Notes: generated from the sequence alone by a model not told the origin. A stretch of DNA of 56,475 bases from a virus (IMGVR_UViG_3300041409_000280:1-56475); one strand, 5' to 3'; shown: positions 1,458-53,390, numbered from the stretch's first letter. Numbers and translations are program-made.

Positions 1458-2153
1458 TTATTCAGCTATTATTGCCTTATGTATATTTGGAAAACAATTG
1501 GAGAACAAATCATAGGCTTTTTCTGCTACCTGCCTATGCTCCAATTGTGTGTGTTGATCGCAGCGTACTTGAAAATAGTGGATCCAACTGCGGACGCTGC
1601 CTTTCATATAAATTGTTGTTTGAGTTGTTAATGGTAATACCATTCTCGCGCATTCTTTAGCTGTACCAGCAGCTAACAACGCTTTATAAAGGTTTTTCCC
1701 ATACGATATATAGTTATCTATACACTCCTGGGCTCCACCACTAATTTGTATCTCATTGCCGGATTCAGTTGAAAACATGCCTGTTCCACATTCTATGAAT
1801 GGATTGTGGGCATCCTCACTACTTTGTCTATTCGTAGCTGCTTGTTTACGTAACTGAATATCTTCCATTTCATTTACTTCCGCATAACGTTGGGAAAACT
1901 CTTGAAATGAAAAAGATCGGTGCCTTAAAATTTGTGCTGCAATTGCCCTACTAGTTTTTATTTCGATTGTCATATCGACCATTTCAAATGGACTCCAATG
2001 TTTATTCTTAATAAGATACCGGATGAGTTTATCACTTGTTTCCGTATTCATCTGGTTACTAGGATTACTAACTCTGGCAATGTACACTATTAACTCCTCT
2101 GGAGTCATAAAGTTTTTTACTAGAGACTGTGTTACTGAAATTAATTTAACGTC
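1458..2153 (-). CDS. thyX: flavin-dependent thymidylate synthase ThyX
   Basis: Makes dTMP from dUMP with FAD, NADPH and methylene-tetrahydrofolate. The diagnostic ThyX motif RHRxxSxxxxSxR is present as RHRSFSFQEFSQR at about residues 76-88, and the C-terminal part keeps the substrate-binding SxRSWxHYFQxRC block. I place the start at the ATG at 2153 (MDVKLISVTQ), giving 231 aa. The open frame continues to 2270, but that stretch lies in the end of the upstream primase gene and has no ThyX similarity. ThyX fits a phage that keeps thymidine supply high, which could matter if thymine is the base modified by the 49-50 kb system. Confidence 0.93.
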   Translation of the reverse strand, partial: DVKLISVTQSLVKNFMTPEELIVYIARVSNPSNQMNTETSDKLIRYLIKNKHWSPFEMVDMTIEIKTSRAIAAQILRHRSFSFQEFSQRYAEVNEMEDIQLRKQAATNRQSSEDAHNPFIECGTGMFSTESGNEIQISGGAQECIDNYISYGKNLYKALLAAGTAKECARMVLPLTTQTTIYMKGSVRSWIHYFQVRCDQHTQLEHRQVAEKAYDLFSNCFPNIHKAIIAE

Positions 2154-2229
2154 CATAAAAATTTTGTTGAGTAAGTTATTATAATGGAAAATATTATTAC
2201 GATAATACAATATATGAGTGTGCTCCTTT

Positions 2230-4752
2230 TCATAAATTCGGTTTAGGTAATCGTTTTTCATACTCCCCAAAAGTTAATTCCGGATACTCGTTTGCTATTT
2301 TATAAGCCATTCTATTCATGTTCCCAACAACTATAGAAGTAATTTCAACATTAGTAGCTCCTATACAGTTTAAAAACTCCCTGGCTAATTTTCCCGCTCT
2401 AACAGGTGTAGACTTTCCGTCGTGTTCTTTAACTATAGAAGTTAGTAGTTGCTGAGGTACAAGCAGCCCGCCATCCTTACCACGTTTAACATTGCTGATA
2501 AAGGTATTTGCTAACTCGTAAAATAACTCACTTTCATTAGTCTGAATAAATCTAACCATTAATGCGTTACCTATAATTGTATTTTCCGGTGCTTTAGCTG
2601 ATAAATGATATTGAAGTGCTCGCATACTAAAGCTATCAAAAGTATTCCAGTCGTTTTCGTCCCAATCGGTAAAGAACTCCTTACCGTGAAAGTCCACAAT
2701 AGGTTTAATAGTATTACCATGCTCCTTCCCCCAACGAACATAGAAGTCATCGACTTGCGTAACAAATTGTCGACCAGCTTCACTGTTACCCTCTGCTTCT
2801 AATACCCAATTACTCGCTATCATAAACTTAACAGGTTTAACAATAGGAGCAACCCCCTTACCTTCTGCACTCATGTCTCCCGTTATCATATTAAACATTG
2901 GTTGTAAACTCATATATTTACTTGGATCGTCAATAAATACGACATCAGTCCAGGGCTGTACAGTTTGAAAGGCGAAGCGATTTTTAAAATCGATAGACTT
3001 TCCATCAATGATAACCATACTTCTAATTTTTCCAACTGCCTGGCCGATAATAGTTTTACCGGTACGTCCATTATTTCCAGGACGCGTATCATATAGCAGC
3101 CAGGCACGCGCTGTCGATTGCCGTTTACTGCCTTGTAGCATATATCCATAGTACCATAAAGCCCGCGAATAATTTTTACTGCTTCGTTTCTCTTTAGTAT
3201 TTTTTCCTCGTCCACAAACATTTTCAAAAAACTCTTCATACATACCTTTCTTAGTAGTGTACTTGAATTCTCGTGGCAATATTCGCTCCTTCCAGATCTG
3301 CATTCCGACTTGTTCATAGGGTATTAACTTTATGTTTTTATTAGTAACTTTTGCTACTCCGTTTTGAAACGGTATATAACTTTCTGTGTTTGTGTCCTTC
3401 AATAAATTAGGTGTCCAGTGTGTTAAACTAGCTGCTATCTGATTATATGTCGTACTCTGCCCTCGGATTGTTCTCCATAGGTGTGCTAACTCTTCCCAAC
3501 TGAAATGGAACTTAAGTTCTTTATAGCTAAAATCATAGTCCCCATCCCCTTCAATATGAGTAGTTACTATACGCATAATATCCCCGCTATCTACTACCTC
3601 TACTATATTACCGATAATTTGTACATACAGTTTACCGAACCTATAAAACCCTTTTTCCTTCAATAGTTTTTCGAATTCATTGAGGTTAATATTATAGGGG
3701 AGTAGGTCGATTAGTACATTTGTTTCCTTATCGAATATCTTTTTAAATAGAAATAGTTTAAACCTTACTAACCCTATTAAATCTCCCTGTTGGTTTTCTT
3801 CATCGGCATCCTCACCTGCACCAACAGCGTGTCCTTTGTTAAACTTTTTAGTTAAGTGTTTAATAGTAGCTTTAGGTAGAGCATCATTAATTATCTGAAA
3901 AACACTTGCTATCGTAACGGGTTTATCTACAATGTTAGTGTATTTACGTTCCATACAGGCATCGTACATGTCATCACAGACGTCCTTATTATAGTCGTGG
4001 TAATTTTTACTGATGCGATGGAATGCTTCCCTGCCGTGTTCATCTAAACTGTAGGTTAACCCGAATGCTATATTTAACCAATTTTCGTAAGACTCGGTAA
4101 CGTCCTTATCCCCTAAACTATCGATATAGCTATTAAGCTCTGCTAAATCTTTAGCAACATTTTCACTAGGCTTTTTAACCTTAATCTTTTTTACGGGTAA
4201 AGGCTTAATAACTAATTTACTTTTTGGAAAATAAAACGCTTCAGAGTCATAGCTAACATATTGAAGGGATGCAATTGATTTAACTATAGGATCAACGTTA
4301 ATCTTAATACCCTTTTTTTGCAATCGTTCTACTGCCGCGTCGTATATACGTCTATGTTCAGCAGCGTCTTTTGTAGGAGAGCATCTGTATATTATTTTTA
4401 TGCCCTCACCTCCACATGAAATGAACTGTGCTATACACTCCCGATCTACTAGATCCTGAACTCTTATTTTAGGGTTATCTTTTTTGTCTACGTCTAATGC
4501 TATATAACCGCTATGACTTAGCAGTCTTTGACCTACAGGTATATGCTTTGTTCTGGAACTAAAATCCCCTGATATAGTAATAGCTGGTAACTGACTTTTT
4601 ATTTTTTTATAATCCTTACTATCTTTCTTTTCTCGTAAGCTTAGTACCAGCTTACTCCAAAAACCGTTTTTTATCCTTTCGATAAATTCACCCAATGTTG
4701 TTACTTCCATTGGTGTATCGGAAAAGGAATTTTTAAATATCGTTAACTTCAT
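2230..4752 (-). CDS. VirE-N / PriCT-like primase and SF3/D5-type helicase fusion
   Basis: An 840-aa replication protein. Residues 1-190 resemble the VirE N-terminal (BT4734-type) domain typical of Bacteroidetes mobile elements (LLSHSGYIALDVDKKDN...SCGGEGIKIIY). A helical primase-C-terminal-like region follows (ENWLNIAFGL...RKY). The C-terminal half is a helicase ATPase with Walker A GNNGRTGKT near residue 557 and Walker B VVFIDD near 604. It probably primes and unwinds at the phage origin together with the polymerase encoded upstream at 5967-7835. Length and order match phage primase-helicases of this host group. Confidence 0.85.
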   Translation of the reverse strand: MKLTIFKNSFSDTPMEVTTLGEFIERIKNGFWSKLVLSLREKKDSKDYKKIKSQLPAITISGDFSSRTKHIPVGQRLLSHSGYIALDVDKKDNPKIRVQDLVDRECIAQFISCGGEGIKIIYRCSPTKDAAEHRRIYDAAVERLQKKGIKINVDPIVKSIASLQYVSYDSEAFYFPKSKLVIKPLPVKKIKVKKPSENVAKDLAELNSYIDSLGDKDVTESYENWLNIAFGLTYSLDEHGREAFHRISKNYHDYNKDVCDDMYDACMERKYTNIVDKPVTIASVFQIINDALPKATIKHLTKKFNKGHAVGAGEDADEENQQGDLIGLVRFKLFLFKKIFDKETNVLIDLLPYNINLNEFEKLLKEKGFYRFGKLYVQIIGNIVEVVDSGDIMRIVTTHIEGDGDYDFSYKELKFHFSWEELAHLWRTIRGQSTTYNQIAASLTHWTPNLLKDTNTESYIPFQNGVAKVTNKNIKLIPYEQVGMQIWKERILPREFKYTTKKGMYEEFFENVCGRGKNTKEKRSSKNYSRALWYYGYMLQGSKRQSTARAWLLYDTRPGNNGRTGKTIIGQAVGKIRSMVIIDGKSIDFKNRFAFQTVQPWTDVVFIDDPSKYMSLQPMFNMITGDMSAEGKGVAPIVKPVKFMIASNWVLEAEGNSEAGRQFVTQVDDFYVRWGKEHGNTIKPIVDFHGKEFFTDWDENDWNTFDSFSMRALQYHLSAKAPENTIIGNALMVRFIQTNESELFYELANTFISNVKRGKDGGLLVPQQLLTSIVKEHDGKSTPVRAGKLAREFLNCIGATNVEITSIVVGNMNRMAYKIANEYPELTFGEYEKRLPKPNL

Positions 4753-48534: not shown

Positions 48535-48933
48535 TTAAAAAATGTCATCAGGCATGCGGGGGACGCTTGTTTTTGACCAGTTTTTGCGGGTTTTACGCTC
48601 TTTATTGGCCTTAGTAGTGTTATCAGCCAGGGTGAGTACTTGAATGTTTGTAGCGGTATAGCCTATATCCGACTTGATCCTATCAATAGAGTAACTATCC
48701 GGAGTTAGTCCTTTAAATTCCAGATAGTTATTCTCTATACAAAAGGATTCGAAGTCCTTCAATGATAGCTCCCAGGAAATTCCCCTCCTAGTTGCATTTG
48801 CTTTATTAATATGGTAGGTAGCTACTAATTTATGTTTAGCTCTATACAGCCTAGACCTACATTTATTACACCTCTTCCTTCCTTTAGCTGCATAATTAAG
48901 ACAGTAAGTTATATCACAGTAGCGGTGTTCCAT
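48535..48933 (-). CDS. HNH-like homing endonuclease
   Basis: A 132-aa protein with an N-terminal zinc site (YCDITYC...KRCNKC) and a C-terminal HNH-variant block (SIDRIKSDIGYTATNIQVLT, then ADNTTKANKE). This type is frequent in phages near terminase genes, either as a mobile nuclease or a packaging-associated nicking enzyme. Its place between terS and the base-modification operon suggests insertion. Confidence 0.7.
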   Translation of the reverse strand: MEHRYCDITYCLNYAAKGRKRCNKCRSRLYRAKHKLVATYHINKANATRRGISWELSLKDFESFCIENNYLEFKGLTPDSYSIDRIKSDIGYTATNIQVLTLADNTTKANKERKTRKNWSKTSVPRMPDDIF

Positions 48934-48947
48934 ATAAAATAAGTTAA

Positions 48948-49739
48948 TTAACGTATCATAACATGACTTCCTTTAGGCCATCCAGCCTTGTCAGCTATTT
49001 TTATATATTTAGGGTAAGCCTTAACAAGATAGTTGCACTCTTTTATTTTTTGTTCCATCCTATTCTCCTTTGAACCGAACGATCCTGCAGTATATCTTTT
49101 ACAATCAGGCAACACCCAGTTATTTACAACGACTCCACCAAAGTATTTTAAATTAAGTGCTGTAAAACAAGTATCATCTATTAATTGAACGTTCGTATCA
49201 AAACGTAACTCTGTCTTCTTCACAATCCAACAACGGCCATCGGCTAAGCCTCTATAGCTGTATTTATTTCGTCTAAACATAGGATTGTTTGTTAGACTAA
49301 AGCCTACTAAACAATATCCTTTACTTTCTGCATGTCTAACCGACTCCTCAGCAATTTTATAAAATGTTTTAGTACCGCAAGGAGTTTTAAATAACTTACG
49401 AGCTTCATTTTGATTCTCTTTACAGATATTAAGTTTACTTCCTGAGTACCCTGGGTAATTTCCGTACCTCGTAACTGCTATAAGGTCATCTACCCAAAAC
49501 GCTGCCCACTCCCCTGGCTTCATTAAACTTAGTGCATAGTTACGATTGTTACTTAGTCCTTTAGGTTCCAATGTTTCAATTATACGTCCATGAATCTTAC
49601 CAGCATCAGTAAACTTTTTTCTTTGTTCAGCAGTATGACAAAGTACAGTATGGTTAATATCCTTAAGATATTCGCTAGTTGTAATATCTGCATACCTATC
49701 GTAAGTAAAGACAAAAGTATTTTTTATTAAATTACCCAT
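48948..49739 (-). CDS. GREB1/TAGT-like GT-A glycosyltransferase (TET-associated)
   Basis: A 263-aa protein. Blocks TVLCHTAEQRKKF near 31, GLSNNRNYAL near 61-70 and FWVDDLIAV (D84, D85 as the DxD-like metal site) match the TET-associated glycosyltransferase group related to the GREB1 C-terminal domain. It overlaps the upstream TET/JBP gene by 8 bp, so the pair is co-translated. Predicted to transfer a sugar to the hydroxymethylated base in phage DNA. Sugar and donor are unknown; no sugar-nucleotide genes are present. Confidence 0.72.
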   Translation of the reverse strand: MGNLIKNTFVFTYDRYADITTSEYLKDINHTVLCHTAEQRKKFTDAGKIHGRIIETLEPKGLSNNRNYALSLMKPGEWAAFWVDDLIAVTRYGNYPGYSGSKLNICKENQNEARKLFKTPCGTKTFYKIAEESVRHAESKGYCLVGFSLTNNPMFRRNKYSYRGLADGRCWIVKKTELRFDTNVQLIDDTCFTALNLKYFGGVVVNNWVLPDCKRYTAGSFGSKENRMEQKIKECNYLVKAYPKYIKIADKAGWPKGSHVMIR

Positions 49740-50622
49740 TTAAACTTTCTCCTTTCTTTCTATTTTGCACTCGCTTAAGCTCCTCAGCCATTGTCCCACA
49801 ATTAATCATATTTTCACGGTAGTACATAACTAACGATAATCTTATTGCATTTTTATCGTCCTTAACAATTGGTGTATTACCATGCCATTGGTGTACGTCA
49901 ACCATTAATAAATCCCCGTTACGTAAATCAAAACCTACTCCCCAACGAACGACAACAAAATAGCCTCCGGTAAATGTGCCTTTACGTAAAGCTACTAAAT
50001 TACCGAATCCTTCTTTAAAGTCCCCACTATCTTTATGCACGGCAGTTTGCCAATTCTGGTTAACTGTTACCGTTGTAAATGATGTATCAGGTATAACAAA
50101 ATCTTTAGATGTCTTATCAGCCTGTTTCCTTTGCCTGCTATATTGTTCAGGCATAAGAGACTTATACATATTATCGACTAACTTTATTATCGGATATGCT
50201 TTTTTAAACTTATCAAAATGATGTTTATTAAAAGCAGTTAGTCTACAATTTGGGAACCTCGGAGTACGATCAAAAAAGCCCGCAATGCCGGTAAGCACTT
50301 CACCTTTAAACCTTACCCTACTAGTTTTTGACGCTTTACCCTTCTTTGTAATTTCTGCCTCCTGCGAGGTTGCTGAAGTAACAGCCCTGTTACTGTTATC
50401 TCCTACTACTTTCTTAAGAGAAGTAAAGGCAGCCAGTTGAATATCAGCAGGTATAACATTCTTTCGATACTTAGCAATACATTGCTTTGTCTGTTTACAG
50501 TAAACATCAACGCTGTCTTTAAACATTATTTTTACATCTGAAAAAGATAACATTTTCCCTTCAAACAAATCACTTTGTTCCACGGACATTAAAGGTTCCA
50601 AATATACTTTCTTTACTTTCAT
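49732..50622 (-). CDS. TET/JBP-family 2-oxoglutarate/Fe(II) dioxygenase
   Basis: A 296-aa protein with the TET/JBP core in residues 180-270: FTTVTVNQNW, then HKD (H196, D198 as iron ligands), GGYFVVVRWGVGFDLRNGD, WHGNTPI (H247 as the distal iron ligand) and RLSLVMYY (R261 for 2-oxoglutarate). Expected to oxidise the methyl group of thymine or 5-methylcytosine in DNA. Residues 1-110 are an unfamiliar basic extension. No C5-cytosine methyltransferase was recognised in this genome, favouring thymine (JBP-like) or host-made 5mC as substrate. Confidence 0.85.
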   Translation of the reverse strand: MKVKKVYLEPLMSVEQSDLFEGKMLSFSDVKIMFKDSVDVYCKQTKQCIAKYRKNVIPADIQLAAFTSLKKVVGDNSNRAVTSATSQEAEITKKGKASKTSRVRFKGEVLTGIAGFFDRTPRFPNCRLTAFNKHHFDKFKKAYPIIKLVDNMYKSLMPEQYSRQRKQADKTSKDFVIPDTSFTTVTVNQNWQTAVHKDSGDFKEGFGNLVALRKGTFTGGYFVVVRWGVGFDLRNGDLLMVDVHQWHGNTPIVKDDKNAIRLSLVMYYRENMINCGTMAEELKRVQNRKKGESLNG

Positions 50623-50804
50623 ACCTTTTTTACTTTTTTATGTTTTGGCTGATTACATATGGCTTCTGGATTTTTACCTACACCTTTATTAGCTAGTAGG
50701 TACCTACACTCATCACAATTTATAGTTGTGTAGTAACCACAATCGGATTCCCCCCAATAATCAAAGTAGCCTTTACACTTCGCATGCCTTTTCTGCGTAC
50801 TCAT
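50619..50804 (-). CDS. small zinc-ribbon protein of the base-modification operon
   Basis: A 61-aa basic protein with cysteines at about positions 10, 22, 30, 33 and 50 (KCKGYF...DCGYYTTINCDECRY). It overlaps both flanking genes by 4 bp, so it is part of the same coupled operon. It may guide the enzymes to DNA; role inferred from context. Confidence 0.6.
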   Translation of the reverse strand: MSTQKRHAKCKGYFDYWGESDCGYYTTINCDECRYLLANKGVGKNPEAICNQPKHKKVKKV

Positions 50805-51478
50805 ACCTTCAATACTTTAATAGCCTTAAGCACTATATTAGTAGTACCTTCTACTTTATATTTCTTACCAAACTTCTCTTCCCATTTACGAAACTCCTCC
50901 TCCTGCTTCTCGCTAAAGAAAAGTTGTACCATTTTAATATCCGTTACCTCTTGTTGTCCTGCAATTGTTTTACCTTTCTTTTCACCAGGGTACTCTAGAT
51001 TTTGGCCCACTACTGCATTTTTGGACGCTTTACCCATACCGCTAAGTAACTCCATTGGTACTTCCCATCCCCAGGCTTTATAGAAATCGGCAGTAGTGCC
51101 CAGATCCTTTTTAATTCGTTCGGTGTCTACATCACCTGCAACTGCAAAATCAAACATTGCGGACATCTCCGTAAACTGTTTATCCGTCAATGGTACGTTA
51201 GGTATAGATACCCAAATTTCCTTCGTGCCTTTTTCTTTAGCGTCTTCTACTCTGCTATTACCATCAATTAATACATACTTACCCGTATGTTTACCATTTT
51301 TCATTTTCGGGTTTACTACTGCGTTACCAGCCAGGCCAAATTTCTTTAATGATAGTTGAAACCGCTGTTTACCTAAATCAGTTTTAATCTTATAGTTGTT
51401 AGGTGTAGGCTCTATATCAACTACCTTTACTTTTTTGGACGCCCATTCAATAGGTGCAATACTTTTTATTTTAGCCAT
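50801..51478 (-). CDS. ParB-like nuclease-fold protein of the base-modification operon
   Basis: A 225-aa protein. Residues 15-95 form a ParB/sulfiredoxin-like domain: KVVDIEPTPNNYK, QLSLKKFG, then YVLIDGNSRVEDAKEKG in place of the GERRxxAA box. The C-terminal region is helical and basic with KKYKVEGTTNIVLKAI. ParB-fold proteins are known in predicted TET/JBP base-modification cassettes, where they may bind NTP or DNA or process the modified base. It is the first gene of the coupled operon. Confidence 0.75.
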   Translation of the reverse strand: MAKIKSIAPIEWASKKVKVVDIEPTPNNYKIKTDLGKQRFQLSLKKFGLAGNAVVNPKMKNGKHTGKYVLIDGNSRVEDAKEKGTKEIWVSIPNVPLTDKQFTEMSAMFDFAVAGDVDTERIKKDLGTTADFYKAWGWEVPMELLSGMGKASKNAVVGQNLEYPGEKKGKTIAGQQEVTDIKMVQLFFSEKQEEEFRKWEEKFGKKYKVEGTTNIVLKAIKVLKV

Positions 51479-51535
51479 AGTTTTAATTTAATTTCAAAGG
51501 TATGGAAATTTTAATTACTTAACAAATTTATTTTA

Positions 51536-52793: not shown

Positions 52794-53390
52794 CTACATA
52801 CAGATATCTAACTTTTTTAACTCTTTTGTTAAGTTCCTATAGTCAGTGGATACATAGCAGCCAGGGGACGCTATTTGCTTCATAAAGTTTTCGTCTACTT
52901 CGTCCGAGTCCACCATGATAGTAAATATTTTAATGTTCATTACCTTTAACAGATGTGTTGTCATAATAGTTGCCTCATCATTATCCGGCAATCCATCGGA
53001 TATTAGTATAACTATTCTACTATACCCTTCTCGTCCGTTATTTTCCAACTCTTCAAATGCAAACGAAAATCCTTCAGACATGTTAGTGGAGCCGTCCGGA
53101 TATGGAATATTATTTATCCTCTCACTTATATAGTTGTTATCTGCCGTTAAACTACATCTATTAGATGCGAAAGAAGAAAATGTAATTAGGCCAATCTTTA
53201 CGCCATCTTCGGATAGTTTAAAAGCACTGATGTATGATAGTAGTGCTTGTTTTATAAATATATGTTCTCTACCCACACTTTCGGATAAGTCCGCTAATAG
53301 TACTATATCCAACTTCAAACACCCATCATCCTTTTGCTTCCCGCTAGTTAATAGCAGAATTAGCATTGTTCCTATTAGTATACCTTTCAT
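52794..53390 (-). CDS. secreted von Willebrand factor A-domain protein
   Basis: A 198-aa protein with an N-terminal hydrophobic signal (KGILIGTMLILLLTSG) and a complete vWA domain. Metal-site (MIDAS) residues are DLSES (D34, S36, S38), T103 in DGSTNM and D133 in LISDGLPD. vWA proteins bind partners through a metal ion. As an exported phage product it may bind a host surface protein. Its role in infection is unknown. Confidence 0.75.
   Translation of the reverse strand: MKGILIGTMLILLLTSGKQKDDGCLKLDIVLLADLSESVGREHIFIKQALLSYISAFKLSEDGVKIGLITFSSFASNRCSLTADNNYISERINNIPYPDGSTNMSEGFSFAFEELENNGREGYSRIVILISDGLPDNDEATIMTTHLLKVMNIKIFTIMVDSDEVDENFMKQIASPGCYVSTDYRNLTKELKKLDICM

What the first reader, a model, noticed from the sequence alone, without database searches (positions are those of the whole stretch)
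48948..51478. Compact TET/JBP - TAGT glycosyltransferase - zinc-ribbon - ParB operon: predicted DNA base oxidation and glycosylation, without a visible methyltransferase
Seen: four genes with 4-8 bp overlaps. The dioxygenase has an H196-x-D198 pair, a distal H247 and R261. The glycosyltransferase has an RN...VDDL region, and the ParB-fold protein has an IDGNSR box. Known: TET/JBP enzymes oxidise 5mC or thymine, and phage cassettes pairing TET/JBP with GREB1-like TAGT glycosyltransferases and ParB-fold proteins have been predicted. Phage TETs shown to act on cytosine work with a C5-methyltransferase. Inference: no C5-MTase was recognised in this closed genome, so the substrate may be thymine (a base-J-like product in a bacteriophage) or 5mC made by the host. 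The ThyX gene fits a high thymidine demand.
Basis: partly seen in the sequence, partly recalled or inferred. Interest (0 to 1): 0.85.

Follow-up and report, generated by a model that had tools for sequence, protein, structure and literature searches.

The report
Phage thymine oxidation and glycosylation operon
A virus of bacteria carries a small set of genes that probably turns thymine in its own DNA into a sugar-coated base, much like 'base J' of trypanosomes, most likely as camouflage against bacterial defences; the kind of gene set is known, but that product has, as far as I could find, not been reported from a phage.

Summary
The operon is real: ParB-fold, a 61-aa Cys-rich protein, a TET/JBP dioxygenase and a glycosyltransferase, overlapping by 4, 4 and 8 bp. 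The dioxygenase matches Pfam Tet_JBP (5e-25) and folds like NgTET1/TET2; the glycosyltransferase folds like phage TET-associated glycosyltransferases. Substrate is the open question, and comparison favours thymine. Records of this TET clade almost never hold a C5-methyltransferase (2/44), whereas a control TET lineage has one in 42/42. The window TET sits in a fully supported clade of eight in which six relatives are followed by ADDT, an enzyme of the 5-hydroxymethyluracil hypermodification pathway, instead of a glycosyltransferase; active-site positions are shared. No C5-, D12 or N6/N4-methyltransferase family and no thymidylate-synthase-type hydroxymethylase is found in the genome. A close homologue of this glycosyltransferase (48-53%) also follows ParB and a very different, ADDT-associated TET lineage. 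Best reading: thymine -> 5hmU -> glycosyl-5hmU in phage DNA, a base-J-like product. This is inference: no residue proves thymine over 5mC, no product was measured. The 'zinc ribbon' is an unproven orphan. ParB-TET cassettes are already annotated as thymidine hypermodification, so this is a new member of a known kind, directly testable in cultured Nonlabens phage P12024L.

The parts
50801..51478 (-). ParB-fold protein, 225 aa, Box II-like IDGNSR (71-76); first gene of the operon
   Evidence: profile match to Spo0J/ParB 8e-8; phrog ParB-like 2e-4; ParB precedes TET in many relatives
51495..51526 (-). candidate Bacteroidota-type promoter TTTG-N20-TACCTTTG, ending about 17 bp upstream of the ParB start
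   Evidence: pattern search, 4 in the window against 2.3 expected by chance; consensus from general knowledge; weak
50619..50804 (-). 61-aa Cys-rich orphan ORF (C10, C22, C30, C33, C50); zinc ribbon not demonstrated
   Evidence: no Pfam/PHROG hit, no relative in IMG/VR or in the fetched loci
49732..50622 (-). TET/JBP Fe(II)/2-oxoglutarate dioxygenase, 296 aa; H196/D198/H247 metal triad, R261 2OG arginine; predicted thymine 5-methyl hydroxylase acting on DNA
   Evidence: Pfam Tet_JBP 5.3e-25; AlphaFold model pLDDT 81, Foldseek NgTET1 6e-12 and TET2 1e-11; invariant residues
48948..49739 (-). GT-A glycosyltransferase of the TAGT type, 263 aa, DD motif at 84-85; predicted to glycosylate the 5-hydroxymethyl group
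   Evidence: model pLDDT 90; Foldseek to phage TAGT proteins 3e-15 and GT-A enzymes 5e-5; phrog_842
48535..48933 (-). HNH / endonuclease VII-like protein directly downstream; probably part of the packaging region, not of the modification pathway
   Evidence: phrog_3322 6e-9; homologues of GT, HNH and TerS also together in L060
47867..48511 (-). terminase small subunit (boundary of the cassette)
   Evidence: PF16677 1e-16, phrog_606 3e-28
1458..2270 (-). ThyX thymidylate synthase (context only)
   Evidence: PF02511 3e-50

Best explanation
A phage-encoded, post-replicative thymine hypermodification operon. The TET/JBP enzyme hydroxylates the 5-methyl group of thymine in phage DNA (giving 5-hydroxymethyluracil), and the TAGT-type GT-A enzyme puts a sugar from a host nucleotide-sugar on that hydroxyl, giving a base-J-like 5-(glycosyloxymethyl)uracil. 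The ParB-fold protein probably binds DNA (possibly as a nucleotide-switched clamp) and brings the oxidase to it. The most likely benefit is protection of the genome from host nucleases. Shown here: gene order, families, folds, catalytic residues, absence of the common DNA methyltransferase families and of thymidylate-synthase-type hydroxymethylases, and exchange of ADDT and GT behind the same TET clade. Inferred: thymine as substrate, 5hmU as acceptor, the sugar, the role of ParB, protection.
For: TET family and fold; GT fold. C5-MTase in 2/44 records of the window-type search against 42/42 of Melnitz-type TETs, where it is mostly directly adjacent. ADDT (PF18724) in 13 of 42 records searched, within about 1.3 kb of TET in nearly all of them, including every one of the nine 53-56% identical TET records searched. 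Tree: window TET in a 100/99 clade of eight, six ADDT-linked; ADDT and TAGT labels interleave with at least 7 changes, the C5-MTase group is separate. TAGT- and ADDT-linked members share nearly all of the sampled active-site positions. No thymidylate-synthase family in the window, in the partial close ADDT-linked relatives or in complete phages CaiB, Prince and MO526 that carry kinase/ADDT-type genes, so TET is the only visible 5hmU source. Close GT homologues (48-53%) follow ParB and a 24%-identical, ADDT-associated TET lineage. Published thymidine hypermodification runs through 5hmdU and a 5hmdU DNA kinase (PMC6449724).
Against: No base-reading residue proves thymine. D201 aligns with NgTet1 Asp234, which contacts N4 of 5mC, and R269 aligns with CcTet Arg393, which contacts O2 of 5mC (PMC11040006). 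The C5-MTase-linked TETs share the aspartate. ADDT specificity for 5hmU is known from other phages, not from these; one ADDT-linked phage, Cr30, does have a thymidylate-synthase family gene. Most relatives are contig fragments, so absences there are weak. Window GT has no Pfam hit. Host-made 5mC cannot be excluded.
Confidence: 0.68

Rival explanations
1. The oxidase acts on 5-methylcytosine made by a host methyltransferase (or one not recognised here), and the GT glycosylates 5-hydroxymethylcytosine, as in the TET + C5-MTase + glycosyltransferase phage clusters.
For: Base-contact residues D201 and R269 both occur at equivalent positions in enzymes that act on 5mC; the nearest solved structures are 5mC enzymes; PHROG and Pfam relatives of the GT include a T-even glucosyl-HMC glucosyltransferase.
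Against: No C5-MTase in this genome and in only 2/44 clade records, against 42/42 for the C5-MTase-linked lineage; host 5mC would give only sparse sites; the clade exchanges GT with ADDT.
Confidence: 0.17
2. Same chemistry on thymine, but at few ParB-selected sites, as a mark for packaging, replication or late transcription (as base J is a mark in trypanosomes) rather than genome-wide armour.
For: ParB-fold gene is the first gene of the operon and recurs before two very different TETs; in the related phage L226 the same ParB is followed by a D12 adenine methyltransferase instead; the cassette lies next to terminase.
Against: ParB-fold proteins accompany many phage DNA-modifying enzymes with no known regulatory role (PMC12704722, PMC12783734); exchange with other hypermodification enzymes looks like an arms race.
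Confidence: 0.2
3. The TET and GT are independent: the GT glycosylates a non-DNA target or a hydroxymethyl base from another source, and its position behind TET is accidental.
For: The GT falls below the Pfam TAGT cut-off and has no hit in cultured phages.
Against: GT follows TET in most of the relatives in which it was found, usually within 700 bp, and close homologues follow two deeply different TETs; no other 5-hydroxymethyl source found in the genome.
Confidence: 0.06

Closest known systems
ParB - TET ('thymidine hydroxylase') - ADDT/aGPT-PPlase2 - 5hmU kinase operons of actinophages (Mycobacterium phage Prince, Gordonia phage CaiB, Rhodococcus phage Tonitrus)
   Same: ParB-fold gene directly before a TET/JBP gene, in the two genomes searched (CaiB, Prince) no thymidylate-synthase-type hydroxymethylase and in CaiB no C5-MTase; already annotated as thymidine hypermodification (PMC11955845)
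   Different: Here the downstream enzyme is a glycosyltransferase instead of kinase and ADDT; TET about 25% identical; low-GC phage, probably of Bacteroidota
Kinetoplastid base J pathway (JBP1/2 + JGT)
   Same: TET/JBP oxidation of thymine followed by glycosylation of 5hmU (knowledge; PMC6449724)
   Different: Virus of bacteria; GT is TAGT-type GT-A; JBP itself was not compared here; purpose probably anti-restriction
Phage TET + C5-methyltransferase (+ glycosyltransferase) clusters, such as Methylophilales phage Melnitz and those of Burke et al. 2021
   Same: TET/JBP fold and predicted oxidation followed by decoration
   Different: Melnitz-type records have a C5-MTase (42/42); their R+8 active-site residue is mostly Asp instead of Arg
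T2/T6 beta-glucosyl-HMC-alpha-glucosyltransferase (TAGT, PF20691)
   Same: same GT-A fold group and weak sequence kinship
   Different: acts on already glucosylated 5hmC; window GT is below the Pfam cut-off

Membership tests
TET/JBP dioxygenases | Pfam Tet_JBP domain above curated cut-off | tested here: met
   88 bits against 34.9
TET/JBP dioxygenases | HxD...H metal triad and 2OG-binding Arg | tested here: met
   H196, D198, H247, R261 invariant in 23 sequences
TET/JBP dioxygenases | double-stranded beta-helix fold like TET | tested here: met
   model pLDDT 81; NgTET1 6e-12, TET2 1e-11
TET/JBP dioxygenases | oxidation of the 5-methyl of a pyrimidine in DNA | not testable with these tools
   needs an enzyme assay
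JBP-like thymine hydroxylase (as opposed to 5mC TET) | no co-encoded C5-methyltransferase | tested here: met
   0 in window; 2/44 in clade records, control 42/42
JBP-like thymine hydroxylase (as opposed to 5mC TET) | context of 5hmU-using enzymes in the same oxidase clade | tested here: met
   ADDT in the closest relatives; interleaved tree; the window itself has no ADDT
JBP-like thymine hydroxylase (as opposed to 5mC TET) | active-site residues selective for thymine | tested here: inconclusive
   D201 and R269 both match residues of 5mC enzymes; no discriminating residue known to me
TAGT (TET-associated glycosyltransferase, PF20691) | Pfam TAGT above cut-off | tested here: not met
   no hit for window GT at E up to 1; homologue L040 15.3 bits against 27.5
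TAGT (TET-associated glycosyltransferase, PF20691) | GT-A fold matching phage TAGT proteins, DxD-like metal site | tested here: met
   BFVD TAGT hits 3e-15, 6e-12; D84-D85 invariant
TAGT (TET-associated glycosyltransferase, PF20691) | gene next to TET | tested here: met
   8-bp overlap; GT near TET in about 30 relatives
ParB-CTPase fold | N-terminal ParB domain with Box II arginine | tested here: met
   Spo0J/ParB profile match 8e-8; GNSR with invariant R76
ParB-CTPase fold | nucleotide binding | not testable with these tools
   needs a binding assay
zinc ribbon | paired CxxC knuckles or a family match | tested here: inconclusive
   one CxxC (30-33) plus single Cys; no family, no relatives

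The most novel reading that the evidence does not exclude
Bacteriophages of this clade make a true base-J-type nucleotide, 5-(glycosyloxymethyl)uracil, by in-situ oxidation of thymine and glycosylation, and do so through a modification locus with interchangeable finishing enzymes (sugar, amino acid via ADDT, or, in L226, adenine methylation) behind a ParB-fold partner.
Probability: 0.6. Interest if true: 0.72.

Novelty: new member of a known kind. Interest (0 to 1): 0.52.

Why it matters
[quoted passage not shown] If the reading is right, the JBP-then-glycosyltransferase route is used by phages too. The work here turns an open choice (T or 5mC) into a clear prediction, gives a contrast set (C5-MTase-linked against ADDT/GT-linked TETs), and names cultured phages in which one nucleoside analysis would decide.

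Tried and rejected
Single-sequence searches for GT and ParB in cultured phages found nothing. A search for the TET clade in 84,980 bacterial and archaeal genomes found none, so no host could be read from prophages. A residue signature to separate T from 5mC enzymes was sought: the position eight after the 2OG Arg is Arg in the window clade, Leu or Ile in the actinophage type and mostly Asp in the C5-MTase-linked type, but CcTet, a 5mC enzyme, also has Arg there, so it marks clades, not substrate. ThyX as evidence for thymine modification: rejected as unspecific. Zinc ribbon as a working part: rejected for lack of any relative. A promoter-motif enrichment for the host was not significant genome-wide. 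Key papers could not be read: Iyer 2013, Burke 2021 and Lee 2022 were looked up and are not held, Lee 2018 was not looked up; they are cited from knowledge only.

Full report
Observation. The four reported ORFs exist on the minus strand with the stated compact layout: ParB-fold 50801-51478, 61-aa ORF 50619-50804, TET/JBP 49732-50622, GT 48948-49739, overlapping by 4, 4 and 8 bp. The record carries a 70-bp direct terminal repeat, so it is probably a complete genome.

What the proteins are. The dioxygenase matches Pfam Tet_JBP at 5.3e-25. In an alignment of 23 relatives H196, D198, H247 and R261 are invariant, and its AlphaFold model (pLDDT 81) finds NgTET1, human TET2, CcTet and CMD1 first. The GT gives only a weak PHROG hit (phrog_842, a T-even glucosyl-HMC glucosyltransferase family, 2.7e-3; its homologue in L040 gives 1e-8) and no Pfam hit, but its model (pLDDT 90) matches predicted phage proteins named TET-associated glycosyltransferase at 3e-15 and 6e-12 and solved GT-A enzymes at 5e-5. 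The first gene is a ParB-fold protein by profile (Spo0J/ParB 8e-8). The 61-aa ORF has five cysteines but no family and no relative anywhere searched; I do not count it as a proven part.

What else the genome has. No C5-MTase (PF00145), no N6/N4 or D12 methyltransferase, no thymidylate-synthase family enzyme that could make hydroxymethyl-dUMP or -dCMP; it has ThyX. A BT4734-like primase domain and a terminase whose best matches are largely Flavobacterium phages suggest a Bacteroidota host; a TTTG-N20-TACCTTTG motif stands just upstream of ParB, though such motifs are not enriched in the window as a whole.

Relatives and context. Fifty-four IMG/VR loci and several cultured phages encode relatives of the TET. 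In these the gene after TET, or one or two further on, is mostly either a TAGT-type GT (about 30 loci) or an ADDT-type enzyme, often with a P-loop kinase, amidotransferase-, acetyltransferase-, FAD- or PLP-type protein. ADDT (amino acid:DNA transferase) and the 5hmdU DNA kinase belong to the known thymidine hypermodification pathway that starts from 5hmdU (established knowledge, Lee et al.; also PMC6449724). ADDT was found in 13 of 42 records searched, among them all nine searched records with the closest TETs (53-56% identity). In the maximum-likelihood tree the window TET lies in a 100/99-supported clade of eight with six ADDT-linked members; the ADDT and TAGT labels change at least seven times over the tree. 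So the same oxidase clade feeds either finishing enzyme.

Control for the substrate question. A different TET lineage, found from Methylophilales phage Melnitz, carries a C5-MTase in 42 of 42 records, mostly directly adjacent to TET; the same Pfam search finds one in 2 of 44 window-type records, 0 of 5 other cultured phages and 5 of 49 actinophage-type records, of which 22 of 49 have ADDT. For 2/44 against 42/42 Fisher's exact p is 1.5e-22; the records are related, so the p value overstates the number of independent events. In the complete actinophage genomes CaiB, Prince and MO526, kinase/ADDT-type genes occur with TET but without a thymidylate-synthase-type enzyme, which leaves TET as the only visible source of 5hmU. 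Phage Prince's TET is in fact deposited as 'thymidine hydroxylase', and Rhodococcus phage Tonitrus is described as ParB, tet-like J-binding protein, aGPT-Pplase2, 5-hmU kinase (PMC11955845).

The GT points the same way. Its close homologues (57-69%) lie in L060, L061 and L040, the latter two with TETs only 36-39% identical; further ones (48-53%) lie directly after ParB and TET in L135, L128 and L088, whose TETs are of the actinophage type and only 24% identical. Thus one GT subfamily is paired with two deeply separate oxidase lineages, both associated elsewhere with ADDT and rarely with a C5-MTase.

Limits. The active site does not settle it. D201 aligns with Asn1387/Asp234 of TET2/NgTet1, which contact N4 of 5mC, and R269 with CcTet Arg393, which contacts O2 of 5mC (PMC11040006; alignments). 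Both are compatible with 5mC. One ADDT-linked phage, Cr30, does have a thymidylate-synthase family gene. Many relatives are fragments. No product is measured. The sugar is unknown, and no sugar-nucleotide genes were recognised in the genes examined.

Mechanism proposed. ParB binds phage DNA and helps load TET; TET hydroxylates thymine; GT transfers a hexose from a host nucleotide-sugar; the decorated base blocks host nucleases. In the related phage L226 (polymerase 56%, primase 48%, ParB 47% identical) the same ParB is followed by a D12 adenine methyltransferase in place of 61-aa ORF-TET-GT, which supports ParB as a general partner of DNA-modifying enzymes and the locus as an exchangeable modification slot.

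Novelty. ParB-TET and TET-TAGT phage cassettes have been predicted for years (Iyer et al. 2013, from knowledge; not readable here) and ParB-TET-ADDT operons are annotated as thymidine hypermodification. This is a new member of that kind. What is added is a strong contextual case for thymine, a glycosyltransferase subfamily below the Pfam TAGT cut-off, and a testable prediction of base-J-like DNA in phages, which had not been reported as of 2019 (PMC6449724).

Noticed in passing
L226:6010-7349: In a related phage the orthologous ParB is followed by a D12-class adenine methyltransferase instead of the TET/GT genes, in the same slot between primase and terminase.
   Followed up: yes
L056:8497-9195 and L152:6033-6734: In Pelagibacter phage HTVC112P and Prochlorococcus phage MED4-184 an FkbM-like methyltransferase sits next to TET near a ParB-fold gene, which suggests methylation of the hydroxymethyl group or of a sugar as another finishing step.
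   Followed up: no
L153:4010-6194 and L155-L225: A large marine TET lineage paired with an HhaI-like C5-methyltransferase (42/42 records searched), with mostly Asp at the position eight after the 2OG arginine.
   Followed up: yes
cultured phage records: Many TET/JBP genes are misnamed in GenBank as 'SNF2 DNA repair protein' or 'queuine tRNA-ribosyltransferase'; MED4-184's ParB-fold gene is named 'DNA methylase'; Prince's ADDT-position gene is named 'DNA glycosylase'.
   Followed up: partly
L039:10910-14739: TET followed by a PLP-dependent-enzyme-like protein, an ADDT-type protein and a P-loop kinase: an unusual combination of thymidine-hypermodification genes.
   Followed up: no
L005 from 6823 on, and similar loci among L002-L011: TET followed by a glutamine-amidotransferase-like protein, an acetyltransferase-like protein and ADDT, a possible further hypermodification pathway.
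   Followed up: no
L066:6660-7990: Arthrobacter phage Prairie has an annotated glycosyltransferase plus an annotated glucosaminyl deacetylase behind TET, hinting at an amino-sugar on the base.
   Followed up: no
window 48535-48933: HNH/endonuclease VII-like gene between GT and terminase small subunit; homologues of all three also occur together in L060.
   Followed up: partly
window 52794-53390: Protein with a von Willebrand factor A domain (PF00092 7e-22) near the cassette; role unknown.
   Followed up: no
L002 and L008 records (L063, L062): The only two C5-MTase matches in the window-type TET records; both lie a few kb from TET and not directly beside it.
   Followed up: partly
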